64,000 bases of DNA. Source: Candidatus Electrothrix communis. GTDB lineage: Bacteria; Desulfobacterota; Desulfobulbia; Desulfobulbales; Desulfobulbaceae. The notes under the pieces are model-generated. The model was not told the origin of the DNA, ran no database searches, and worked only from the letters and a program-made list of their open reading frames with translations. Made by a program: the position numbers and the translations under genes. The stretch spans positions 4,479,501 through 4,543,500 of the forward strand of contig CP130629.1 in assembly GCA_030644725.1 (NCBI GenBank). Direction: 5' to 3'. Position 1 is the first letter of the stretch, and every line of letters starts with the position of its first letter. Positions 5,401-52,395 of this stretch are shown piece after piece.

Positions 5401-6383
5401 GAGTGCAGGAGGTGATCTCGGCGGCAGTGGGCGGAAAAATGGTCACCATGACCGTGGAAGGCCGGGAGCGTTACCCGGTGCAGGTGCGCTATCAGCGCGA
5501 GCGGCGAGATTCGGTCGAAGCCCTGAGCCGCATCCTGGTCACCGCCTCCACGGGCAAGCACATCCCGCTGGCCCAGCTGGCCGATATTCGCTACGTGCGC
5601 GGCCCCCAGATGATCAAGAGTGAGGACACCTTCCTGACCGGCTATGTCCTGTTTGATAAGAAGAAGGGTTTTGCCGAGGTGGACGTGGTCGAGCAGACCC
5701 GCAGCTTTCTGCTGGAAAAAATCGACAGCGGCGAGCTGCGCATTCCGCTCGGCGTATCCTATACCTTTGCTGGCAATTACGAGAACCAGATCCGGGCCCA
5801 GAAGCGACTGTCCGTAATCCTGCCCCTGGCCCTGCTGGTGATCATGCTCATCCTCTATCTCCAATTCCGTTCTTTGGGTACCACTATGATGGTCTTTTCC
5901 GCCATCCTGGTGGCCTGGTCCGGCGGCTTCCTGATGATCTGGCTCTATGGTCAGGACTGGTTCCTGGATTTTTCTTTGTTTGATACGGACATGCGCAGAC
6001 TTTTCCAGGTGCATGCGATCAACCTGTCCGTGGCCATCTGGGTGGGCTTCCTGGCCCTGTTCGGCATCGCCACTGATGATGGGGTGCTCATGGCCACCTA
6101 TCTGGATGAATCCAAGGCCCGCCTCAAGGATAGGGAGGGCCGAACCCGGCAGGACATCCGCGACATGGTCCTGCACGGGGCCCAGCGCCGCATCCGCCCG
6201 GCCCTGATGACCTCGGCCACCACTATCCTGGCCCTGATTCCGATTCTGACCTCCACTGGTCGGGGCTCGGATATTATGGTGCCTATGGCTATTCCTTCTT
6301 TCGGGGGGATGATTATTGCGATGCTGACTGTTTTTGTGGTGCCGGTGTTGTATTGTTGGGTTGAGGAGAGAAAATCGGGATGA
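2490..6383 (+). CDS. CusA/CzcA-type heavy-metal efflux RND transporter, unusually long
   Basis: An inner-membrane proton-driven pump of 1297 residues, against roughly 1040 for typical CusA or CzcA. An N-terminal helix is followed by the porter domain, and SGIAIAIGTIVDMGIIICEN marks helix 4. FMPFLDEGSFLYMPTT begins the second periplasmic half, and the last helices carry FGIATDDGVLMATYLDE. The extra length lies around residues 545-690, where several additional hydrophobic segments are inserted between the two halves. The membrane-fusion and outer-membrane partners that such pumps need are not adjacent; only relics are seen upstream. No strong ribosome-binding site precedes the ATG. Monovalent (Cu/Ag) or divalent specificity cannot be decided from sequence alone. 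Confidence 0.88.
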   Translation: MNSPNQQLPPATSLVSAIIRFCLLNKMVVGLLLLAVTGWGLMVAPFDFNLGDLPRNPVPVDAIPDIGENQQIVFTKWAGRSPQDMEDQVTYPLTVSLLGLPGVKTVRSYSMFGFSSIYVIFDDSVEFYWSRSRLLEKLSSMPPGTLPAGVQPTLGPDATGLGQIFWYTLEGRTPEGKPAGGWDLAELRSIQDWYVRYALMGASGISEVASIGGFVKEYQIDVDPDALHDRGVSLEEVFAAARQSNIDVGARTIEINRVEYVIRGIGFVKSIKDLEQSVIKAVDNIPIRISDVATVSLGPALRRGVLDKAGSEVVGGVAVVRYGDNPLAAIERVKEKIREISPGLPSKTLADGTVSKITVVPFYDRSGLIHETLDTLKTALSEEILITIIVVLVTVMHLRSSILISALLPLTVLMAFVGMKLFGVDANVVALSGIAIAIGTIVDMGIIICENILTRLDEAGPEEPTLRIIYDASVEVGGAVLTAVSTTIVSFLPVFTMQAAEGKLFKPLAYTKTFALISSVVIALTVLPPLAHILFRRKKEGKASWKIRLALPILLIIAGVILVWKVHLLGLVVVGFGCYKLILQFLPKKLLPVFTRLENWLVILLVMVLLARSWQPLGIEKGDSTNFFFVALLIGGLLGFFQVFQWLYPHLLRVFLRWKLAFLIFPLLVVIGGAMVWLGVPKLTGWLPDSIRRAKPMMSLAHSFPGLGREFMPFLDEGSFLYMPTTMPHAGLTEVQEVLAAQDRAITAIPEVESAVGKLGRAETPLDPAPLSMIETIINYHPEYLEDEQGNRLLFAWRADRKDFCRSPAGVLLKAGDGMPYLVQGRFARDERGRLVPDPDGRPFRLWRASLDPAINPDREPWPGIENTDDIWNEIVVAAEIPGVTSAPKLQPIAARIVMLQSGMRAPMGIKVKGPDLATIERVGLDLERLVKQVPSVSPLTVLADRVVGKPYLEIVIDREAISRHGIRLGRVQEVISAAVGGKMVTMTVEGRERYPVQVRYQRERRDSVEALSRILVTASTGKHIPLAQLADIRYVRGPQMIKSEDTFLTGYVLFDKKKGFAEVDVVEQTRSFLLEKIDSGELRIPLGVSYTFAGNYENQIRAQKRLSVILPLALLVIMLILYLQFRSLGTTMMVFSAILVAWSGGFLMIWLYGQDWFLDFSLFDTDMRRLFQVHAINLSVAIWVGFLALFGIATDDGVLMATYLDESKARLKDREGRTRQDIRDMVLHGAQRRIRPALMTSATTILALIPILTSTGRGSDIMVPMAIPSFGGMIIAMLTVFVVPVLYCWVEERKSG

Positions 6384-6437
6384 TTGTGGATTTGCCTCTT
6401 TACCTGCACAGAATGATTGCTGTATACTGAGATCATA

Positions 6438-6878
6438 ATGAAAATATATCTTGATAACTGCTGCATTCAGCGACCACTTGATGACAGGACTCAGCTAAGG
6501 ATTGCGGTGGAGGGTGAAATCATCCTGAACATTCTCTCGCTGATTGAAGCGGGACAAATCAGGCTGCTTTCATCTGAAATCTCGCTTTATGAGGCGGAGA
6601 AAATCAGCAATACCTTTCGCAGAGAATTCACGCTGAAGGTACTGAGCGAACGAAGCGGATTCACCCAGCTCAATGATGCGATTGAAGAACGTTCAGGGCT
6701 GTTCACCGATTTTGGCATCAAACCGATTGATGCCCTGCATCTTGCAGCAGCGGAAATGCTGAAAGCTGACTTCTTCTGCACCTGCGATGACAGGTTTTTG
6801 AAAAAGGCGAAGAGAGTAGACGACCTCAGAGTCAGGGCTGTTTCAATCCTTGAACTGTTACAGGAGATGGAAAAATGA
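6438..6878 (+). CDS. PIN-domain nuclease (VapC-like toxin)
   Basis: 146 residues. MKIYLDNCCIQRP gives the first acidic residue of the PIN fold. An acidic residue follows in the SEISLYEAEK segment, and GIKPIDALHLAAAEML plus TCDDRFL supply the remaining conserved acids. PIN toxins are Mg-dependent RNases. The ATG at 6438 is chosen because the family begins with this strand. The stop overlaps the next small gene by four bases, and here the toxin comes first. The 5' end of this gene and the preceding pump tail are repeated in decayed form at 7217-7535. Confidence 0.75.
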   Translation: MKIYLDNCCIQRPLDDRTQLRIAVEGEIILNILSLIEAGQIRLLSSEISLYEAEKISNTFRREFTLKVLSERSGFTQLNDAIEERSGLFTDFGIKPIDALHLAAAEMLKADFFCTCDDRFLKKAKRVDDLRVRAVSILELLQEMEK

Positions 6879-7216: not shown

Positions 7217-7416
7217 CAGCGGCGCATCCGCCCGGCCCTGATGACCTCGGCCACTACCATTCTGGCCCTGATTCCGATCCTGACCTCCACCGGTCGGGGA
7301 TCGGATATTATGTGCCTATGGCTATTCCTTCGTTTGGCGGGATGGTTATTGCTCTACTGACGGTTTTTGTGGTGCCGGTGTTGTATTGTTGGGTTGAGGA
7401 GGGGAGTGTCGAATGA
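7217..7416 (+). pseudogene. Decayed copy of the 3' end of the RND pump gene
   Basis: This stretch closely matches 6183-6383, the last 65 or so codons of the upstream pump. The match starts at CAGCGGCGCATCCG and ends at a stop in the same context. A lost base in GATATTATG/TGCCTATGG breaks the frame. It has no start and cannot be made as protein. With the next relic it shows that the pump-PIN junction was duplicated in tandem. Confidence 0.85.
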
Positions 7417-7535
7417 TTCTGGATTTTTGTTTCTTTGCCTGTATGGAGTGATTACTGTATACTGAGATCATGATAAAAATATATCTTGTTAACTGCTGCA
7501 TTCCTATGGCGACAACGTTGAACGATATAATCAAG
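7417..7535 (+). pseudogene. Fused relic of the PIN gene start and the small antitoxin start
   Basis: Bases 7441-7505 match the leader and first ten or so codons of the PIN gene (6417-6470), including CTGTATACTGAGATCAT. The match then jumps directly to GGCGACAACGTTGAACGATAT, which corresponds to the start of the small partner gene near 6887. About 415 bases of the original are missing between the two. The duplicated segment therefore suffered an internal deletion. Its remaining leader now sits just ahead of the Uma2 gene. Confidence 0.8.
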
Positions 7536-12424: not shown

Positions 12425-12656
12425 ATGAAAGAATTAAACATGGAAATATTACCCGAGGCCGCAAAAAGAGAGCTGTTCGGCTTCTATGAATATCTCGTTG
12501 ACAAATATACAAAAAAAGGCTGTAAAACAGTCGGATCAAGCAAGGGGCAAGAAGGTTTTGGTTGCCCTGCAAGAGTTTAAGCGCCTGAGAGAACGATTAC
12601 ATCCTGTTGTCGACCCATCTGTGGATATCGACAAACTCATCAATACAATGAAGTAG
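12425..12656 (+). pseudogene. Small antitoxin-like gene frameshifted in an A7 run
   Basis: The ATG at 12425 has AGGAG six bases ahead. The frame reads MKELNMEILPEAAKRELFGFYEYLVDKY and then meets seven A residues at 12511-12517. With six A the frame would continue AVKQSDQARGKKVLVALQEF...VDIDKLINTMK and stop at 12654-12656, giving about 76 residues. As sequenced the frame runs off to a stop at 12580. The intact form would resemble short DUF2281/VapB-type antitoxins. No toxin gene follows directly. It is either a decayed gene, a slippage-controlled gene or a sequencing error. Confidence 0.65.
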
Positions 12657-12929
12657 GGGCGAACCCCATGTGTTCGCCAAGTCCATAGGCAGGTCAGCGT
12701 ATTTTTCCATCAGCCTCAGAAGAATGCCGCTGTGTTCATTTTCACAACAACCATGCCGTAAATCAGGGTCAGAGTCTGATTCATTACGCACCCCCACCGG
12801 TCAAAGCGTTCCGTCACCTCTATCACGCTTTATTGATTTTCGCAGGATAATCAATTAAGATAGAAGAATATCTTCGGAGAATCAATCACGTTTGACCATA
12901 TGATTCTTTCAACAACACGGGGCCATGAT

Positions 12930-15354: not shown

Positions 15355-15572
15355 AACAATGCAATATCATACAGCCCATCCTTCAGCTTTGTTATGATCT
15401 CTCTGTCCAATGGATGATCGGCTATGATCAGAAAATCCCAGTCAGAATCCTGCCGGGCTTCATTACGGGCACGGGAGCCATGCAGAATTACTTTCGCATC
15501 AGGCAGCAGACGATGCACTTCTTCCCGCACCTGATGCGGGATCTTGACCTGATTAACCAAATAAGTTACCAT
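15355..15572 (-). pseudogene. N-terminal half of a MntA-like nucleotidyltransferase
   Basis: The ATG at 15572 opens MVTYLVNQVKIPHQ, followed by the intact nucleotidyltransferase motif HGSRARNEARQDSDWDF (GS...DxD). After KDGLYDI the frame departs from the family and runs into the tail of the fic gene on the other strand, stopping at 15276. The missing C-terminal half is found about 960 bp away at 16187-16440. In MNT/HEPN modules this protein AMPylates the HEPN toxin; no HEPN gene is seen here. Confidence 0.75.
15361..15468. repeat. About 108-bp direct repeat (copy 1) flanking the TumA/TumE genes
   Basis: CAATATCATACAGCCCATCC and the following bases match 16323-16431 with about ten differences. 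Both copies code for the same central part of a nucleotidyltransferase on the minus strand. They enclose the TumA/TumE pair. Confidence 0.85.
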
Positions 15573-16190: not shown

Positions 16191-16440
16191 ATAGGGGGCG
16201 CACCAAGTTTCACTACACTCTCTTTCTCCACCGCCTTTTTGAACGGCAACGCATCGTATTCAGGCGAAGACCACTCCTGCCTCCTCCGTATAATGCTGCT
16301 CATCATCTCATCATTTTCCAGTTCAATATCATACAGCCCATCCTTCAGCTTTGTTATGATCTCTCGCTCCAGCGAATGATCGGCTATGATCAAAAAATCC
16401 CGGTCAGAGTCCTGCCGGGTTGCATTGGCGGACGCGAGAA
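16187..16440 (-). pseudogene. C-terminal half of the MntA-like nucleotidyltransferase
   Basis: On the minus strand the frame reads QDSDRDFLIIADHSLEREI, KDGLYDIELENDEMMSSII and ends FKKAVEKESVVKLGAPPI at 16187. It lacks the N-terminus and the GS motif. Together with 15355-15572 it would make one complete protein of about 120 residues. Its stop is interleaved with the TumE stop on the other strand. Confidence 0.75.
16323..16431. repeat. About 108-bp direct repeat (copy 2) flanking the TumA/TumE genes
   Basis: Second copy of the unit at 15361-15468. It ends at the upstream edge of the M1-ChaN-PDZ gene region, so the junction with the next gene lies here. Confidence 0.85.
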
Positions 16441-25003: not shown

Positions 25004-26074
25004 TCAGCAAATCCTCGGCAACAACTCGCCGGGTAGCATATCCAGAAGCCGGGTGCCACCGATGGCCGTCCGTAACCGAACTTCCGCCTTATCTGCGTTG
25101 ATGACCCTACCAATGATCGCGGCATCTTCCCCGTACCGTGTCTGACGCATGGTTGCCAGCACGGCCTCGGCATCTTCCGGCGGAACAAAGGCGACCAGCT
25201 TGCCCTCATTAGCGATAAAAAGTGGATCAAAGCCCAGCATTTCGCAGGCAGCGCGGACAGCAGGTTTCACGGGCAATTTGTCTTCTTCGATCAGCAGGCT
25301 GATCTTGGATTGCTCAGATATTTCGACTAATGAGGTCGCTAACCCGCCACGGGTGGGATCGCGCAGGGTATGGACCTCACCAGCAGCCAGCATGGATTGG
25401 ACAAGATGATTGAGCGGAGCCGCATCGCTGACCAGATCAGTATCAAAGCCCAGGCCCTCGCGGGCAGCCAGCACAGCGATACCATGATCACCGATGGTGC
25501 CGGACAGGATGATCACATCCCCTGGTCGAGCATTGGCCCCGGAGATCTGCACGCCTTGGTCTACCAGGCCGACCCCGGAGGTGTTGATGAAGAGCTTGTC
25601 CGCACTGCCGCGTTGCACCACCTTGGTGTCACCCGCAGCAAAATGGATGCCTGCCTCTTGAGCTGCTGCCCGCATTGAGGCCAGCACCCGCCGAAGTGTG
25701 TCAAAGGGCAGGCCTTCCTCCAGGATAAAGCCGCAGGTCAGGGCCAAGGGCTTTGCTCCGACCATAGCCAAGTCGTTCACGGTCCCGCAGACCGCCAAAT
25801 GACCGATATCTCCGCCAGGAAAAAAGAGGGGCTCTACCACATGGGAATCGGTGCTCAGGGCCAAACGCTGGCCTTGGCGTTGCCCTTGATCCAGGGTTGC
25901 AATGATCGCGGCATCGTCCAGGGCGCGCGGGGCAGCCTCACCCAGCTCCGGGAGAAAGACCTGTTCAACCAGTTCCCGGCTCAGGGTGCCGCCGGAGCCG
26001 TGCCCGAGCAGGACGGTTTCCTTGGGACGATGTGGAGTCGGGCAGGTCGGGCCTGCAAACGTTGGTTCATCCAT
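25004..26074 (-). CDS. hypE: Hydrogenase maturation protein HypE
   Basis: 356 residues from MDEPTFAGP. The frame is open further upstream only across a repeat. HypE dehydrates the HypF-made thiocarbamate on its C-terminal Cys to thiocyanate, the source of the CN ligands of the [NiFe] site. Seen here: LLGHGSGGTLSREL at the N-terminus, AIIATLDQGQRQGQRLALSTDSH, AAGDTKVVQRG, LRDPTRGGLATSLVEI and the essential C-terminal PRIC. It is the last gene of the hyp operon. It lies 83 bases after hypD, and a dispersed hairpin repeat fills that gap. Confidence 0.95.
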   Translation of the reverse strand: MDEPTFAGPTCPTPHRPKETVLLGHGSGGTLSRELVEQVFLPELGEAAPRALDDAAIIATLDQGQRQGQRLALSTDSHVVEPLFFPGGDIGHLAVCGTVNDLAMVGAKPLALTCGFILEEGLPFDTLRRVLASMRAAAQEAGIHFAAGDTKVVQRGSADKLFINTSGVGLVDQGVQISGANARPGDVIILSGTIGDHGIAVLAAREGLGFDTDLVSDAAPLNHLVQSMLAAGEVHTLRDPTRGGLATSLVEISEQSKISLLIEEDKLPVKPAVRAACEMLGFDPLFIANEGKLVAFVPPEDAEAVLATMRQTRYGEDAAIIGRVINADKAEVRLRTAIGGTRLLDMLPGELLPRIC

Positions 26075-26090
26075 GTATTTATGTTTTGTT

Positions 26091-26123
26091 ATCCCTCCCC
26101 TTATCCCCACCAAAGGGAGGGAT
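26091..26123. repeat. Dispersed hairpin repeat ATCCCTCC/GGAGGGAT between hypD and hypE
   Basis: ATCCCTCC at 26091-26098 pairs with GGAGGGAT at 26116-26123. The block begins TTTTGTTATCCCTCCCC, and the same block recurs at 27537-27564 near the end of hypF. It looks like a small dispersed repeat used as intergenic filler in this operon. Confidence 0.65.
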
Positions 26124-26157
26124 GGGGCTTTGTTGTGATGATCTTGATCGATGGTAT

Positions 26158-27240
26158 CTATCGATGATACCTATAATAGGCAGCGCAGGCCCCTTCCGAG
26201 GAAACCATAGGGGCACCGAGCGGAGTTTGCGGTGTGCATTCTTTGCAAAAGGCAGGACATTCCACGGTTTTTTTTAGGCCCTGAAGGATTTCACCGGCGA
26301 TGCAGAGCGGCGACTCCTGGGTGAGTAGGCCCTGTACCTCGAATTTGAGTTCCGCATCAAAGGCGGCAAATTCCGGGCGTAAGTCCCAGCCACTTTGGGG
26401 GATGGTGCCGATGCCTCGCCATTTGCGATCCACCGGCTGGAAGGCCTGTTGGATGCTCTGTTGGGCCGCCGTATTCCCCTGCTGACTGACTGCCCGTAAA
26501 TACTGATTTTCCACCTTAGTCTGTCTTGTTTCCAGTTGTTTGATGGTTGCGTACAGGCCGTGGAGTAAATCAACAGGCTCAAACCCGGTGATCACGATGG
26601 GCACCTGATAGGTTTCTGCGATGGGCAGATATTCGTGAAAGCCCATGACCGCACAGACATGGCCTGCGGCTAAGAACCCCTGGACCCGGCAGTCCTCTGC
26701 CTGGAGAATGGCCTCCATGGCAGGCGGCACCCGGACCTGGGCTGTGATGAGCGAGAAGTTCTTCACCCCCTTCTTTTGGGCCAGCAGGACTGCCATTGCA
26801 TTGGCCGGAGCCGTGGTCTCAAAGCCGATGGCAAAGAAGACCACTTCCTTGTCTGGCTGGGCCTCAGCCAATTGGACCGCTTCCAGGGGCGAGTAGACCA
26901 CCCGCACATCCCCGCCCTTGGCCCGTACCGAGAAAAGATCTGTGTTGGAACCAGGCACCCGCAACATGTCCCCGTAGGAGGTAAAGATAACCTCTGGCCG
27001 GGAGGCAATGGCAATGGCCTTGTCGATCTGCTCCAGTGGGGTCACACAGACCGGGCAGCCCGGCCCGTGGACCAGCTCAATCTGTGGGGGTAGGAGGGCA
27101 TCCAGGCCGTGTCGGAGAAAGGAATGGGTCTGGCCGCCGCAGATCTCCATGATCACCCAGTGTTGGGTGACAAGCCCCTTAATTTCTTGAAGCAGGGCCT
27201 TGACCTGGGCCGGATCGCGGTATTCGTCAAGATACTTCAT
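26158..27240 (-). CDS. hypD: Hydrogenase maturation protein HypD
   Basis: 360 residues from the ATG at 27240. HypD is the Fe-S scaffold on which Fe(CN)2CO is built together with HypC. Conserved motifs are present: [39 protein letters not shown] and FEPVDLL, with the Fe-S cysteines near the C-terminus ([23 protein letters not shown] contains three of them). The start lies inside the end of hypC, overlapping by 14 bases, so translation is coupled. Confidence 0.96.
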
Positions 27241-27469
27241 CGTCAAAGCGGGAGGCCTCCTGGATCAGTTGGATATTTTCCTGGGCCTCGGTCTCGTTCA
27301 TCAGGCTGATGGCAAACCCGGCATGAACCAGGGCATAATCGCCCAGCTCTGCTTCGGGGACAAACTCCAAACAGATTTCTTTGGCAACCCCGCCAAAGTC
27401 GATCTTGGCCATTTGGAGCGCATTTTTTTGATAGATCTCTGTCAGTTTTCCTGGGATAGCAAGGCACAT
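27227..27469 (-). CDS. hypC: Hydrogenase maturation chaperone HypC
   Basis: 80 residues, the usual size. The start is set by the N-terminal MCLAIPGKL, whose Cys2 is needed to carry the Fe(CN)2CO group and to contact the large subunit. The open frame extends 16 codons upstream, but that part is not conserved. [17 protein letters not shown] is the second family motif. It overlaps hypD. Confidence 0.96.
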
Positions 27470-27498
27470 GGTTTTTCTCAGTTTATATGAAAGTACCG

Positions 27499-27518
27499 GG
27501 TGACTCCTTGAAGTCACC
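27499..27518. repeat. Short hairpin between hypF and hypC
   Basis: GGTGACT at 27499-27505 pairs with AGTCACC at 27512-27518. It is a small intercistronic stem, with no T-run, so a role in mRNA stability or in setting expression ratios is possible. Confidence 0.4.
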
Positions 27519-27529
27519 CAACCTAACTT

Positions 27530-30067
27530 TCATTTTTTGTTATCCCTCCCCAGAGGGGAGGGATGGGGGGGTATCATTTGATGATGGGCCACAGCAAGTT
27601 GCCCCAAGGCAAGGCCGCCGTCATTACATGGAATCTGTTGATGGCAATAGACTGTCAGCCCCTGTTCTTTTAAGCCGTTGCGGACCAGCTCAAGCAGGAG
27701 CTGATTTTGCCAGACCCCGCCGGATAGGGCCACCTCGTGCAGGTCGGTTGCTGCACGGGCCTGGAGGCAGAGGTCAATGGTCAGTTGGGCAATGCTGTGG
27801 TGAAATTTTGCTCCGATCAAACCGGCTGGTTCTTTGCTGTGGATATCCTCAATCATGGCTCGGAACAGCTCCAGCAGAGGAATCGCTCTATCCGCTTTTT
27901 CTGCTGTATCAGCAGAGAGAGAGTAGGGTGCATAAGAGGGATAAGGGGCTGCCGAGGTTAGATAGGGCCTGGACAACACCTCCAGCTCAATGGCGGCCTG
28001 GCCCTCGTAGCTGACCCGATTACGGATACCTATCAGGCTGGCTGCTGCATCAAAGAGTCGCCCTAGCGAAGAGGTCAGTGGGCAATTGATTTGCTTATCC
28101 ACCTGTTGCCGGATAATAGTCAGGGCCTGTGGATCAATATTATCGAGAAAGGGCAGGCCGTCAAGCTCTTCGCTTGCTATACCGAGAGCGTGGGCCGCCC
28201 CCACTGCAATGCGCCAGGGCTGGCGGATGGCTGCCTCGCCACCGGGTAGGGGCAGATATTGGAGATGGGCAAAGCGTTTGCACTGTCCGTAGGAGGCAAT
28301 CAGGACTTCGCCGCCCCAGATGGTGCCGTCCGGGCCAAAGCCGGTGCCGTCAAAGGCAAGGCCGATGAGTCGCCGATCCTCCAGGCTGTTATCCACCATG
28401 CAGGCCGCTATATGAGCATGGTGATGTTGGACCGCGATGCAGGGAAGCTCGCTTTGTTGGGCATATTGTTGAGCATAACGGGTGGTGAAGTATTGCGGGT
28501 GAAGATCATGGGCGATGGACTCGGGCTGGATGCGAAAGAGCTGGCTAGCCTGTTGCACAGTCTCTGCAAAGGCGGCACAGGTCGCAGCCTCGTCCATATC
28601 ACCGATATGCTGACTGAGAAAGGCCTGTGTTCTGTCGGCAAGGCAGAAGGTGTTCTTCATTTGACCGCCCACAGCAAGCATGGGTGGAACTGCAAAGGGG
28701 AGCTGGATAGGGTAGGGGGCATAGCCTCGGCTCCTGCGGAGAAAAAGGGCTGTGCGGTTTCCTCTGTCTATCCGCCGCACCGAGTCATCGCAACGACTAT
28801 GGATGGGCCGGTCATGGAAAAGCAGGGCATCAGCCAAGGGAGCCAGTTCGGCAAGGGCTTCTTCGTTTTCTGTCAGAATGGGTTCGCCGCTGCGGTTGCC
28901 GCTGGTCATTACCAGCAGGGCCGGGGCAGGTTCTTGGGCCAAAACAGGATCGTTCTGATCAAGCAGAAGGAGATGGAGTGGGGTATAGGGGAGTATGCAA
29001 CCTAGTTGATCTAGGTTGGGAGCAACAACGGCTTGTTCCGTTGGGGATTCTGTAGGGACACGGCATGCCGTGTCCCTACGTATCAGGCAGGCACGGGGAC
29101 TTGCCTCTACAGACTTCTCCAGCAGGACAATGGGTTTCTCTGATCCCTGGAGTAATTCTGCCTCCGCGTGGCTGACCTGACAGATCCCCCTGATCTGCTC
29201 TAAATCTGCTGCCATCAAGGCAAACGGCTTGTCCGGGCGACCCTTGCGGCGGCGGAGTTCAGCAATTGCGTCGGGATTATTTGCATCACAGGCCAGATGA
29301 AAGCCGCCTAATCCCTTAATGACGAGGATTTTTCCTTGGCGGAGAAGACGACGGGCTGAGAGCAGGGTATCCAGGGCTGTTGTAGGGGTAGATCCCTGTG
29401 TCTGCCCGATGATGTGTAGGGGCACGGCATGCCGTGCTGACCCTACGGGATCCTGGGGAAACGACGATTCCGTAATACAAGGGGCATGCAAGGCAAGGCG
29501 TGGCCCACAGGCCGGGCAGGCAGAAGCCTGGGCATGGAAACGGCGATCCAGCGGGTTGTCGTATTCTGCCTGGCAGGCCGGACAGAGGGGGAAATTCGCC
29601 ATGACCGTATTTGCCCGATCAATGGGCAAATCCTGGATGATGGTAAAACGTGGCCCGCAATTGGTGCAGCTGAGAAAGGGGTAGAGATAACGCCTAGCCG
29701 TCGGATCAAGCAGTTCCTGCTCACAGTCTGAGCAGAGGGATGCATCCGGGGTAATAGGAGTGATGGGCTGGTGTTGGCCCGGTTGATCCGCAGAGGGCAG
29801 GATCGTAAAATCTGTGTACTGGTCCGTATATTGCTCGGCAGGGGTGTCCGTCTCGGTGGTAAGAGCATCAATACGGGCTAGCGGCGGGGCTTTTTTTCTC
29901 AGGCAGGCCAGAAATTCTTCGATAATCGAGGTCTGCCCTTGAAGGAAGATTTCCACCCCAGCGGAGGTGTTGCGCACCCAGCCACAGAGGTGCAGGCGTG
30001 TTGCTAACCCGTAGACAAAGGGGCGAAAACCAACCCCCTGCACCAGGCCCTGTACCCGAATAAACAT
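27530..30067 (-). CDS. hypF: Carbamoyltransferase HypF with palindromic repeat insertions
   Basis: 845 residues, about 95 longer than E. coli HypF (near 750). HypF turns carbamoyl phosphate into carbamoyl-AMP and loads it on HypE. The order is: acylphosphatase domain (VQGVGFRPFVYGLA), two Zn-finger CxxC pairs (SDCEQEL, CTNCGPRF, CPACQAEY, CPACGPRL), YrdC-like domain (VIKGLGGFHLACDA), and Kae1-like domain with CIAVQHHHAHIAAC. Two extra pieces, around residues 200-225 and 320-348, are the translation of palindromic repeats (29416-29446 and 29052-29107) and lie in poorly conserved loops. The last residues (PPHPSPLGRDNKK) come from another dispersed repeat. The frame is otherwise intact, so the enzyme is probably active. 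Confidence 0.95.
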   Translation of the reverse strand: MFIRVQGLVQGVGFRPFVYGLATRLHLCGWVRNTSAGVEIFLQGQTSIIEEFLACLRKKAPPLARIDALTTETDTPAEQYTDQYTDFTILPSADQPGQHQPITPITPDASLCSDCEQELLDPTARRYLYPFLSCTNCGPRFTIIQDLPIDRANTVMANFPLCPACQAEYDNPLDRRFHAQASACPACGPRLALHAPCITESSFPQDPVGSARHAVPLHIIGQTQGSTPTTALDTLLSARRLLRQGKILVIKGLGGFHLACDANNPDAIAELRRRKGRPDKPFALMAADLEQIRGICQVSHAEAELLQGSEKPIVLLEKSVEASPRACLIRRDTACRVPTESPTEQAVVAPNLDQLGCILPYTPLHLLLLDQNDPVLAQEPAPALLVMTSGNRSGEPILTENEEALAELAPLADALLFHDRPIHSRCDDSVRRIDRGNRTALFLRRSRGYAPYPIQLPFAVPPMLAVGGQMKNTFCLADRTQAFLSQHIGDMDEAATCAAFAETVQQASQLFRIQPESIAHDLHPQYFTTRYAQQYAQQSELPCIAVQHHHAHIAACMVDNSLEDRRLIGLAFDGTGFGPDGTIWGGEVLIASYGQCKRFAHLQYLPLPGGEAAIRQPWRIAVGAAHALGIASEELDGLPFLDNIDPQALTIIRQQVDKQINCPLTSSLGRLFDAAASLIGIRNRVSYEGQAAIELEVLSRPYLTSAAPYPSYAPYSLSADTAEKADRAIPLLELFRAMIEDIHSKEPAGLIGAKFHHSIAQLTIDLCLQARAATDLHEVALSGGVWQNQLLLELVRNGLKEQGLTVYCHQQIPCNDGGLALGQLAVAHHQMIPPHPSPLGRDNKK
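27542..27564. repeat. Dispersed hairpin repeat, second copy, at the hypF 3' end
   Basis: ATCCCTCCCC at 27542-27551 pairs with GGGGAGGGAT at 27555-27564. It is the same block as at 26091-26123. Here it supplies the last codons of hypF, so the natural stop was displaced by the repeat. Confidence 0.65.
29052..29107. repeat. Palindromic repeat unit inside hypF (28-bp perfect palindrome plus tail)
   Basis: Bases 29052-29079 form a perfect 28-bp palindrome with half-site GTAGGGACACGGCA. It is followed by GGCAGGCACGGGGACTTGCC, which is also found in variant form between hypA and the protease gene. It is read in frame by hypF. Confidence 0.85.
29416..29446. repeat. Second palindromic repeat unit inside hypF
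   Basis: GTAGGGGCACGGC runs into GCCGTG and ends ACCCTAC, an imperfect palindrome of 31 bp with the same core as the unit at 29052. It is also read in frame, about 340 bp upstream in the gene. Confidence 0.8.
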
Positions 30068-30078
30068 TATTTCGGTTA

Positions 30079-30780
30079 CTACGGGATGATGGCCGCGTTG
30101 ACCTGGCTAAACAGCCAGTCAGCCCAGGCGTCCATGCCTTCACCGGTCTGGCAGGAAAGCGGGAAGGTGGCAATGCCGGGGTTGAGGATCTCAACGCCTT
30201 GGCGGAAATAATCCATATCAAAAGGCACATACGGCAGGAGGTCAATTTTGTTGATGATTAGGGCCTGCATGCCCATGTACATGCCAGGGTATTTATAGGG
30301 TTTATCATCACCCTCGGGGATGGAGGCAATCACCACGTTAAGATGGGTGCCGAGCTGGAAATTGGCCGGGCAGATCAGGTTGCCTACGTTTTCCACCACC
30401 ACCAGATCAATATCGTCCAGAGGCAGCTGGCTCAGGGCATCTTCCATCATCACCGCATCCAGATGGCATTCGCCGCCGGTGTTGACCTGGACTGCTGGCA
30501 TGCCCGCCGCAATGGCCCGGTCCGTATCAATGGAGCCTGCCGGATCGCCCTCAATCACCCCGAGCCGCAGTCGTCCCTTGAGGGCCTCCAGAGTTTTGAG
30601 TAGGGTACTGGTCTTGCCTGCACCAGGGGAGGCCATGATGTTGATCCCGTACACCTTTTTCTGATGCAACAGGCTGTGGTTACGCTGGGCTATCCTGTCA
30701 TTTGCAGACAGGATATTTTCCACCACTGCAACCCGTGTTGTCGTACTCCTCTGAGTAGTATGGCTGTGACCATCGCACAT
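30079..30780 (-). CDS. hypB: Hydrogenase nickel incorporation GTPase HypB
   Basis: 233 residues. HypB drives nickel insertion by GTP hydrolysis together with HypA. The P-loop is ASPGAGKTS; the metal-site motif GGECHLDA, the VVVENVGNL switch and NKIDLLPY (guanine recognition) are all present. The N-terminus is short (MCDGHSHTTQ) without a long His-rich nickel store. It begins 17 bases after hypA and ends 11 bases before hypF. Confidence 0.96.
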   Translation of the reverse strand: MCDGHSHTTQRSTTTRVAVVENILSANDRIAQRNHSLLHQKKVYGINIMASPGAGKTSTLLKTLEALKGRLRLGVIEGDPAGSIDTDRAIAAGMPAVQVNTGGECHLDAVMMEDALSQLPLDDIDLVVVENVGNLICPANFQLGTHLNVVIASIPEGDDKPYKYPGMYMGMQALIINKIDLLPYVPFDMDYFRQGVEILNPGIATFPLSCQTGEGMDAWADWLFSQVNAAIIP

Positions 30781-30797
30781 AGTATTTCTCCGATAAA

Positions 30798-31130
30798 TTA
30801 TTCAACGTCAATGCTGTCCACCTGAAATTCCCGGCCTCCACTGACCCGCACCGCGTTGCTCTTGCAGGAAGGGCAGGTAAAGGTCTCGTTGCCAGGATGA
30901 AAGATATGGTCGCAGGCGGTGCAGGTCATCTCGCCGGGGATGCGCTCGAAATGGAGCTGCGCTTCTGCTGCCACGGTGTTCTCGGCAATGATCTCCCAAT
31001 AAAAATGTACCGAATCATCGACAATGGAGGAGAATTGCCCGATCACCAGATTGACCTGCTGGACTTTTCTGTCCTTGGCGTGTTGGAGGACGATATCAAG
31101 GATGCCTTGGGTGACAGAGAGTTCGTGCAT
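30798..31130 (-). CDS. hypA: Hydrogenase nickel incorporation protein HypA
   Basis: 110 residues. The N-terminal MHE binds nickel, and the zinc site is formed by CTAC and CPSC in the C-terminal half. It passes nickel to the large subunit with HypB. It follows the protease gene after a 73-base gap filled by palindromic repeats. Confidence 0.96.
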   Translation of the reverse strand: MHELSVTQGILDIVLQHAKDRKVQQVNLVIGQFSSIVDDSVHFYWEIIAENTVAAEAQLHFERIPGEMTCTACDHIFHPGNETFTCPSCKSNAVRVSGGREFQVDSIDVE

Positions 31131-31155
31131 GATATTTTGTTAATGATTTTCGTTG

Positions 31156-31203
31156 GGGCACGACGCGTTGTGCCCTTACTCGGGCAGGCACAGGGACCTG
31201 CCC
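31156..31203. repeat. Palindromic repeat pair between the protease gene and hypA
   Basis: GGGCACGACGCGTTGTGCCC at 31156-31175 is a near-perfect palindrome. It is followed by GGGCAGGCACAGGGACCTGC at 31182, a second stem. The same two-part unit occurs inside hypF (29052-29107) and after truA (41893-41912), so it is a dispersed family. Confidence 0.75.
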
Positions 31204-31716
31204 TTACTTGCCAATCAGATCCAGCACCTTTTGCACGGCCAGCGGCACAGCAGCGGCAATTACTGGGCTGAGCTCTTTTTGGAAATCGTAGACATGGGTA
31301 GCCTCCATCGCGACAATATGCATCTGCGCATCATCGGGCAAGAATTCTCTCATGCTGCGACCCAGCTTGAGGGCCTGCTTGAGCGAGACATCATGGGCTG
31401 AAGCGGTATGACCGTGGGTCAGGTCTTCCATATTATCCAGGGTGAAACAGACCACCTCGCCCTGCGGGTGCTTGCCGGTGTTCAGAGCATCAATGAGGAT
31501 AACCCGGTCGAAACCGACGAGCCGTTCCATCAGGCTGAGGCCTTCCAGGGAATAGCGCTCAATGGTGATCGGCTGCTGCTCCTGCTTGTACAGGCCGGGC
31601 AGGGGGGCGTCGCCCAAGGCAATGCCGCTTTGTCTGCTGACTTCTTCGGCGACTCGCCAGCCTACACCGTCATCTCCGAGGATGGGGTTGCCTAGGCCGA
31701 CTATGAGGGTCGTCAT
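31204..31716 (-). CDS. Hydrogenase maturation endopeptidase (M52 family)
   Basis: 170 residues from MTTLIVGLGNPILGDDG. These nickel-dependent proteases cut the C-terminal tail of the [NiFe] large subunit after metal insertion. Nickel ligands fit the family: the acidic residue in GNPILGDDGVG, Asp in VILIDALNTG and His in AHDVSLKQAL. It heads the hyp operon. The structural hydrogenase genes are not in the window, so the target enzyme is unknown. Confidence 0.88.
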   Translation of the reverse strand: MTTLIVGLGNPILGDDGVGWRVAEEVSRQSGIALGDAPLPGLYKQEQQPITIERYSLEGLSLMERLVGFDRVILIDALNTGKHPQGEVVCFTLDNMEDLTHGHTASAHDVSLKQALKLGRSMREFLPDDAQMHIVAMEATHVYDFQKELSPVIAAAVPLAVQKVLDLIGK

Positions 31717-31817
31717 GATGGATGATTGAGAGGGGGTGTCAAACATACTTGAATTTATTATATTTTATTTCTAGCTCTAGTTGCGATGAAATAAGAATAT
31801 ATTTTTATATTAGCTTG

Positions 31818-41002: not shown

Positions 41003-41800
41003 ATGAAGCAGCGCAACATCCGCCTCCTTATTACCTATGACGGTACCAACTTCTGCGGGTGGCAACGGCAGCGTAACGGCCTGAGTATTCAGGAGGCACT
41101 GGAGCAACGACTAGCCCGGATCACCAGGACAGCCGTGCAGGTGAACGGGGCAGGGCGGACTGATGCCGGTGTCCACGCCCAAGGCATGGTGGCGAATTTT
41201 ACCACTGGAGTGACCATGCCTGCCCCTGCCTTTGTCAAGGCCCTCAACTCCATGCTGCCCAAGGACATCCGTATCCTGGGGGCCGAGGAGGCTGCCCCGG
41301 ATTTCCATGCCCGCTTCTCTGCCAAGGGCAAGACCTACCGCTACGATTTCTTCACCGGGGCTATGCAGTCCCCGCTTGAACGCCTCTATCGCACCCATTT
41401 CCCCTGTTCCTTTATGCCGGATAACGTCCAAGCCAGTCTGGACTTCCTGGTCGCTACCCATGACTTTGCCAGCTTCGAGGCTGTAGGCAGCCGAGACCGT
41501 ACCCGGACCACGGGTCGAGGGGCAGTCCGCACCTTGTTCCAGGCTCAATGTCTTGTTGATCCGGCGCGACCGGAACATTTTTCCCTCCGCTTTAGTGGGG
41601 ACGGTTTTCTGCGCCATATGGTGCGGAATCTGGCCGGAACCCTGATTCGGGTGGGGACTGGCCGCCTCACCCCCGAGCAGTTTGTTGCCATCCTTGAAGC
41701 CCAGGATCGGAAAGAGGCCAGCCCGACTGCTCCGGCCTGCGGGCTTTTTCTGGAGAAGGTGCATTATGAGGAGATGGCGGGAAATAACGGGGTCTTGTAG
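41003..41800 (+). CDS. truA: tRNA pseudouridine(38-40) synthase
   Basis: 265 residues. The catalytic Asp is in GAGRTDAGVHA; YDGTNFCGWQRQ, KTYRYDFF and FLRHMVRNLAGTLI are family motifs. It modifies uridines 38-40 in the anticodon arm of tRNAs. It follows argC closely and may share its transcript. Confidence 0.97.
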   Translation: MKQRNIRLLITYDGTNFCGWQRQRNGLSIQEALEQRLARITRTAVQVNGAGRTDAGVHAQGMVANFTTGVTMPAPAFVKALNSMLPKDIRILGAEEAAPDFHARFSAKGKTYRYDFFTGAMQSPLERLYRTHFPCSFMPDNVQASLDFLVATHDFASFEAVGSRDRTRTTGRGAVRTLFQAQCLVDPARPEHFSLRFSGDGFLRHMVRNLAGTLIRVGTGRLTPEQFVAILEAQDRKEASPTAPACGLFLEKVHYEEMAGNNGVL

Positions 41801-41940
41801 GAGCAGACCTGTGTGTCTGCCCGGAATAACACCATAAGGGCGGACACATAGGTCCGCACCCTACGGGGCGTGGTTTTGATGAGGTGCGGTACGGGCACGA
41901 CGCGTCGTGCCCCTTCGCGTAAACAGGCGCATTGCCTTTT
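41801..41940. repeat. Cluster of dispersed palindromic repeats after truA
   Basis: Three stems lie in a row: GCAGACCTGTGTGTCTGC (41806-41823), GGGCGGACACATAGGTCCGC (about 41838) and the perfect 20-bp palindrome GGGCACGACGCGTCGTGCCC at 41893-41912. The same families occur between the protease gene and hypA, inside hypF and after the polyprenyl synthase gene. Confidence 0.75.
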
Positions 41941-52313: not shown

Positions 52314-52395
52314 GTTCCGTAGGGGCAAACCCCTGTGTTTGCCCAAAGGATGGACGGTTCAGGTCAGGCACGGGGCACTGACCCTACGATTCTGC
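52314..52395. repeat. Dispersed palindromic repeats between the polyprenyl synthase and glgP genes
   Basis: TAGGGGCAAACCCCTGTG pairs with the following TTTGCCC, and GGTCAGGCACGGGGCACTGA runs to CCCTACG. Both stems belong to the TAGGGGC...GCCC family seen near 12656, 31156, 41801 and inside hypF. They lie between converging genes and may also stop transcription. Confidence 0.6.

What the first reader, a model, noticed from the sequence alone, without database searches (positions are those of the whole stretch)
29052..29446. Two palindromic repeats inserted in frame into hypF
Bases 29052-29079 form a perfect 28-bp palindrome followed by a second stem, and 29416-29446 a close relative; the same units are found between genes at 31156 and 41893. 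In hypF they are translated and lengthen the protein between conserved blocks (after LVIKG-side Zn fingers and after IVLLEK). This is like Rickettsia palindromic elements, which also live inside genes, but here in a hydrogenase maturase.
Basis: partly seen in the sequence, partly recalled or inferred. Interest (0 to 1): 0.7.

Follow-up and report, generated by a model that had tools for sequence, protein, structure and literature searches.

The report
Mobile palindromes translated inside conserved genes
Two short mobile DNA palindromes (REP elements of a described transposase-linked class) sit in frame inside a hydrogenase-maturation gene and add about 20-30 disordered amino acids at each of two loops; this is a clear, genus-wide example of a known phenomenon, not a new kind of element.

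Summary
hypF (27530-30067, minus) carries two REP clusters in frame: a perfect 28-bp palindrome (29052-29079) plus a stem (29085-29110), and a stem (29382-29407) plus an imperfect 31-bp palindrome (29416-29446). Both loops are missing from HypF outside the genus, vary among congeners, and are predicted disordered. A 26% sample of the genome holds 116 such stem-loops (5 in a reversed-sequence control) in 81 clusters. Ten clusters lie in frame in six genes: hypF, nadE, purL, cobD-cobQ, a helicase and a ketosynthase gene. Orthologous sites are filled in some congeners and empty in others. The elements have the GTAG tag and 'double foot' described for REPs of TnpA-REP subclass 2.4 (RAYT group 4). 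The genome encodes one such transposase with the diagnostic motifs, flanked by these REPs and carrying three of them in frame in its own gene, as described in 2018 (PMC6006769). In-frame REPs in host genes were described in 2013 (PMC3733652). Verdict: new member of a known kind. It works like Rickettsia palindromic elements but is not one of them. The least-known part is that some in-gene sites carry different palindrome cores in different species.

The parts
27530..30067 (-). hypF, carbamoyltransferase HypF, 845 aa, host gene of both insertions
   Evidence: acylphosphatase, two HypF fingers, YrdC, HypF_C domains; TIGR00143, 752 bits
29052..29079 (.). insertion A, double-foot REP (P type, CACGGC core), perfect 28-bp palindrome, translated RRDTACRVPT
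29085..29110 (-). insertion A, single-foot REP stem (L type), translated VEASPRACL
29382..29407 (+). insertion B, single-foot REP stem, translated on the minus strand as GQTQGSTPT
29416..29446 (.). insertion B, imperfect double-foot REP (P type with 3-nt bulge), translated VGSARHAVPL
31156..31207 (-). intergenic REP pair between hypA (30798-31130) and the hydrogenase maturation protease ORF (31204-31746)
41797..41912 (+). REP stems 41797-41822 and 41889-41912, downstream of the truA-like ORF 41003-41800 (gene name from reading the sequence, not searched)
52319..52387 (.). REP pair, 52319-52344 (+) and 52362-52387 (-), GTAG ends outside (head-to-head dimer)
12653..12679 (+). single REP stem

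Best explanation
The two hypF inserts are GTAG-tagged REP clusters of the class served by TnpA-REP (RAYT) subclass 2.4, an IS200-like single-strand HUH transposase. The transposase, or a relative now lost, inserts REP stems around the genome. Most insertions that survive lie between genes; insertions in genes survive only if they keep the frame and fall in a surface loop or linker. The REP has a stop codon in only one frame (the TAG inside GTAG), so the other frames read through, giving VGA(R/N)xxVxP, RRGTACRxPT and related peptides. In HypF the inserts lie in the linker between the zinc fingers and the YrdC domain and in a loop inside the YrdC domain. They are tolerated as disordered extensions and are probably neutral. 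Shown here: identity of the repeat, open frame through it, presence/absence in congeners, predicted disorder, and the cognate transposase with its own internal REPs. Inferred: mobilisation by that transposase, and neutrality.
For: Loops absent in 7 HypF homologues outside the genus, including the sister genus, and variable in four congeners. AlphaFold pLDDT is under 50 at residues 198-228 and 322-342, which are the two inserts, in a mostly confident model; the solved HypF 3VTH lacks them. 116 stem-loops in 1.264 Mb against 5 in the reversed control; 10 of 81 clusters in frame in six genes although about 69% of the sample is in clear coding ORFs. Filled and empty orthologous sites: helicase site 2 filled in G000/G001/G003/G004, empty in G005/G007; nadE filled in G000/G003/G004, empty in G001/G005/G007/G016; cobD filled in all six genus members examined, empty in both sister-genus genomes G016 and G039. 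Genus-wide spread: 8 of 8 genomes, 7-60 copies, nearly absent elsewhere in the family. Own transposase G000:C1:1445894-1446544 (L267): motifs NHIH, WQ, YIHNNP, flanking REPs, three internal REPs in frame. Relatives in 21 of 22 genomes searched; almost all of the intact genes carry internal in-frame REPs, and the core type follows the transposase tree (6 changes, the minimum; shuffled mean 16). Literature: PMC6006769, PMC3733652.
Against: No transposition was observed. No clean insertion footprint or target duplication could be read, because congeners differ by 10-25% and the loops also vary by ordinary indels. A P-type transposase (the type linked to the 28-bp palindrome) was found in congeners G002 and G004 but not in this genome. 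NCBIfam NF047646 scores 60.8 bits, below its cut-off of 80. Expression and function of the lengthened HypF were not tested.
Confidence: 0.9

Rival explanations
1. The inserts were domesticated: the translated peptide or the strong mRNA hairpin serves HypF, for example pausing translation between domains or regulating the hyp operon.
For: The hairpins are strong (-33 kcal/mol for insertion A, z -5.6; -25 for insertion B, z -2.6). They lie at or near domain boundaries in HypF and NadE.
Against: Each module is lost, shortened or replaced in some congener. G007 has an unrelated element in HypF loop 2. The same modules occur in unrelated genes.
Confidence: 0.07
2. These are Rickettsia-palindromic-element-like repeats of a separate lineage without a dedicated transposase.
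For: Same behaviour: palindromic, in frame, several frames used, many unrelated genes.
Against: GTAG tag and double foot, and a cognate subclass 2.4 transposase flanked by and containing the same REPs. PMC3733652 assigns RPE-4/RPE-6 to the CGTC superfamily.
Confidence: 0.02
3. The loops are ordinary low-complexity expansions or an assembly or annotation artefact; the resemblance to the repeats is chance.
For: Congeners also show short tandem repeats in such loops (helicase of G003).
Against: Zero chance matches in shuffles, near-identical units genome-wide, and the same sites occupied in independently assembled congeners.
Confidence: 0.01

Closest known systems
REPs of TnpA-REP subclass 2.4 (= RAYT group 4), Quentin et al. 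2018, PMC6006769
   Different: The host-gene insertions described here (HypF, PurL, NadE, CobD-CobQ, helicase) in this genus are new examples; no difference of mechanism is shown
Intragenic GTAG REPs, Di Nocera et al. 2013, PMC3733652
   Same: REP monomers and dimers in frame in conserved genes, often 20-30 aa, sometimes two per gene (uvrA of Opitutus terrae)
   Different: Different species and target genes; here within-genus filled and empty sites are shown
Rickettsia palindromic elements (RPE)
   Same: Mobile palindromes translated in frame inside unrelated genes
   Different: RPE-4/RPE-6 belong to the CGTC superfamily (PMC3733652); RPE-1 is longer; no RAYT association

Membership tests
GTAG-tagged REP superfamily | GTAG tetranucleotide directly at the foot of a short stem-loop | tested here: met
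   (116 hits, 5 in reversed control)
GTAG-tagged REP superfamily | many dispersed copies, mostly intergenic, singles and dimers | tested here: met
   81 clusters, 50 single, 27 double, 4 triple; 10 intragenic
TnpA-REP subclass 2.4 / RAYT group 4 | transposase motifs NH[IFV]H, WQ, YIxNNP | tested here: met
   L267 has NHIH, LWQPNYW, YIHNNP; signature from PMC6006769
TnpA-REP subclass 2.4 / RAYT group 4 | gene flanked by the same REPs | tested here: met
   L267 upstream REPs at -257 and -40; likewise L250, L251, L264, L265, L279
TnpA-REP subclass 2.4 / RAYT group 4 | REPs inserted in frame inside the transposase gene, generally between HuH and Y motifs | tested here: met
   nearly all intact relatives; L267 has three internal REPs, one of them before the HuH motif
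TnpA-REP subclass 2.4 / RAYT group 4 | double-foot REPs (GTAG...CTAC) | tested here: met
   (14 of 15 double-foot palindromes in the sample are 28 bp)
TnpA-REP subclass 2.4 / RAYT group 4 | NCBIfam NF047646 above cut-off | tested here: inconclusive
   60.8 bits against cut-off 80; PF01797 passes its own cut-off, 27.8 against 23
TnpA-REP subclass 2.4 / RAYT group 4 | single-strand cleavage of the cognate REP | not testable with these tools
   needs purified protein
Rickettsia palindromic elements | CGTC-type tag (RPE-4/6) and no RAYT association | tested here: not met
   GTAG tag; RAYT association; RPE sequences themselves were not aligned here
Rickettsia palindromic elements | in-frame occurrence in many unrelated genes | tested here: met
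classical MITE | terminal inverted repeats with target-site duplication | tested here: inconclusive
   filled and empty sites too diverged to read a footprint

The most novel reading that the evidence does not exclude
A resident intragenic REP can be exchanged in place for another REP of the same length and different core (28 bp for 28 bp), which keeps the host gene in frame. At helicase site 3 the core is CACGGC in G000 and G007 but GACCGG in G001, G003, G004 and G005, between nearly the same boundaries and against the species grouping; at one purL codon the sister genus carries an AATTCA palindrome where G000 carries a dimer. If the transposase does this, conserved genes carry reusable REP sockets.
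Probability: 0.15. Interest if true: 0.6.

Novelty: new member of a known kind. Interest (0 to 1): 0.36.

Why it matters
It gives a clear natural series of one repeat family entering, shrinking and changing inside conserved housekeeping proteins within a single genus, with empty sites for comparison. It shows that annotation pipelines will meet REP-encoded peptides (VGARHAVPL, RRGTACRAPT, GQAQGPAPT) inside real proteins. Because the mobilising transposase itself carries its substrate in frame, the class may be pre-adapted to being translated. The phenomenon itself was already described, so the gain is in examples and in making in-gene turnover testable.

Tried and rejected
(1) The first search for transposases near the repeats used PF01797 in the own genome: none of 15 hits was flanked by this REP, and two were flanked by a different GTAG REP. 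That would have suggested an orphan repeat; the weakly scoring cognate family was found only through congeners. (2) Two papers cover most of what first looked new: intragenic REPs (PMC3733652) and REPs inside the transposase gene (PMC6006769), so novelty was lowered. (3) Reading a target-site duplication from filled and empty sites failed because flanks are too diverged. (4) Testing whether intragenic REPs evolve more slowly than flanking DNA gave mixed results: 88-100% identity in nad, pur, cob and hypF but 70-90% in the helicase, where cores differ. (6) Plasmid search for the transposase gave only 4 distant records. (7) A literature search for the encoded peptide RGTACRAPT found nothing.

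Full report
Observation. The finding is correct. hypF (27530-30067, minus strand, 845 aa; TIGR00143 at 752 bits) contains two clusters of palindromic stems, both inside the open frame. Cluster A is a perfect 28-bp palindrome, GTAGGGACACGGCATGCCGTGTCCCTAC (29052-29079), with a second stem (29085-29110). Cluster B is a stem (29382-29407) with an imperfect palindrome (29416-29446). A search for the palindrome core with three mismatches finds these two places and none in 100 shuffled windows. Other copies in the window lie between genes (31156-31207, 41797-41912) and at 12653-12679 and 52319-52387.

HypF orthologues. In an alignment of HypF from five members of the genus, the sister genus and more distant relatives, the two segments are absent outside the genus (65 residues in this genome against 36-39 outside for loop 1; 41 against 20-25 for loop 2) and vary inside it. 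Loop 1 holds three modules in G005 and G007, and two different pairs in G001/G003 and in this genome. Loop 2 holds the L-P pair in G000, G001 and G005, the palindrome alone in G003, and a wholly different palindromic element in G007. A structure prediction gives pLDDT under 50 at residues 198-228 and 322-342 and high confidence in most of the rest. These are the inserts: a linker between the zinc fingers and the YrdC-like domain, and a loop inside the YrdC-like domain. The solved HypF 3VTH aligns across with the segments missing.

Genome scale. A systematic sample of the genome (60 stretches of 20 kb plus the window, 1.264 Mb, 26%) was scanned for a GTAG foot followed by a GGGC-type stem. It gave 116 stem-loops in 81 clusters, against 5 in the reversed sequence. 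Ten clusters (16 stems) lie in frame in six genes: HypF (2 clusters), a 2047-residue DEAD helicase/AAA protein (4), NAD+ synthase, phosphoribosylformylglycinamidine synthase, a CobD-CobQ fusion, and a ketosynthase gene that has a frameshift further downstream. The ketosynthase was named by reading its sequence. At least 69% of the sample is clearly coding, so clusters in genes are strongly depleted (binomial tail about 1e-25), as expected if most insertions in genes are lost. Among stems with a sense GTAG, seven use the GTA|GGG phase and three the next phase; the third phase would place TAG in frame and is never used. This is forced by the stop codon and is not independent evidence.

Congener occupancy. 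Orthologues of four of these genes were read in five congeners and the sister genus. Helicase site 2 has the dimer in G000, G001, G003 and G004 and no REP in G005 and G007. NadE has REPs in G000, G003 and G004 and none in G001, G005, G007 and G016. CobD has them in all genus members examined and not in the sister genus. PurL has a dimer in G000 and G003, nothing in G005 and G007, and palindromes of other cores in G001 and in the sister genus, the latter at the same codon. Helicase site 3 carries the CACGGC core in G000 and G007 and the GACCGG core in G001, G003, G004 and G005, whereas the gene as a whole groups G000 with G003/G004 and G005 with G007. The repeat is found in all eight members of the genus examined (7-60 copies) and hardly elsewhere in the family; it is patchy in the phylum, 24 of 395 genomes.

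The mobiliser. A first look at 15 IS200-like transposases of this genome found none flanked by this repeat. Searching congeners and other repeat-bearing genomes led to a weakly scoring family. It is present in 21 of the 22 repeat-bearing genomes searched and in this genome as one gene at G000:C1:1445894-1446544 (locus L267). These genes are flanked by the repeat and carry it in frame inside their own coding sequence, usually between the HuH and tyrosine motifs. In most, the internal core equals the flanking core, for example GGTTCG in G227, AATTCA in G016, and an identical nested 64-bp unit in G275. On a tree built with the inserts removed, the internal core type follows the protein phylogeny with the fewest changes possible (6; shuffled mean 16), and the L/R type, which includes this genome's gene, is one supported clade. 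The P type, which goes with the 28-bp palindrome, was found in congeners G002 and G004 but not in this genome.

Known or new. This matches TnpA-REP subclass 2.4 (RAYT group 4) as described in PMC6006769: motifs NH[IFV]H, WQ and YIxNNP, canonical long and 'double foot' REPs, and REP insertions in the transposase gene that keep the reading frame. In-frame REPs in host genes, often dimers encoding 20-30 residues and sometimes two per gene, were catalogued in PMC3733652. The finding is therefore a new member of a known kind. Rickettsia palindromic elements behave alike, but PMC3733652 assigns RPE-4 and RPE-6 to the CGTC superfamily, which lacks a dedicated transposase.

Mechanism and its limits. 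Shown: identity and copy number of the repeat, its translation-compatible placement, its variation between species, predicted disorder of the inserts, and a co-evolving transposase family. Inferred: that this transposase family moved the copies now in hypF, and that the inserts are neutral. Not shown: transposition, target preference, translation in the cell. The one aspect not found in the papers read is that some in-gene sites hold REPs of different core but equal length in different species, which would preserve the frame if REPs can replace one another in place. The evidence is a few sites and could also reflect independent insertion into the same tolerant loop or exchange of alleles between species.

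Noticed in passing
L267 (G000:C1:1445894-1446544), outside the window: The genome's own subclass 2.4 transposase gene carries three REPs in frame inside itself (one before and two after the HuH motif) and REPs upstream.
   Followed up: yes
L075 1253-2030 and L074 575-2023 (own genome), L247-L249 (congeners): A second, different GTAG REP (GTAGGTTGGGGTGAGCGAAACGAACCCCAAC) flanks another transposase type; none lies well inside those genes, though one copy overlaps the 3' end in L075.
   Followed up: partly
L035, HypF loop 2 of G007: The loop is filled by an unrelated palindromic element (GGGCTATGTTCGCCC...CGTCCCGGAGGGACAGTCGATAATAGCCC), a relative of which also stands next to a REP in L029; 3 places match a loose pattern in the 1.264 Mb sample.
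   Followed up: partly
L124 16294-17559 (G000 near 196294-197559): A ketosynthase gene with an in-frame REP loses its frame a few dozen bases further on; a one-base homopolymer difference could be an assembly error or a pseudogene.
   Followed up: no
L182 (G003 helicase gene, near REP site 3): A short tandem repeat (CAACCGGAGGAT units) occupies the loop where congeners carry a REP dimer.
   Followed up: no
window 25004-31746: Complete maturation cluster in the order hypE, hypD, hypC, hypF, hypB, hypA and a hydrogenase protease, all on the minus strand; a REP pair sits in the gap between the protease ORF and hypA. Names other than hypF were read by eye.
   Followed up: no
window 6183-6503 and 7217-7503; 15357-15464 and 16319-16426: Two pairs of long direct repeats (85-93% identical) about 1 kb apart.
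   Followed up: no
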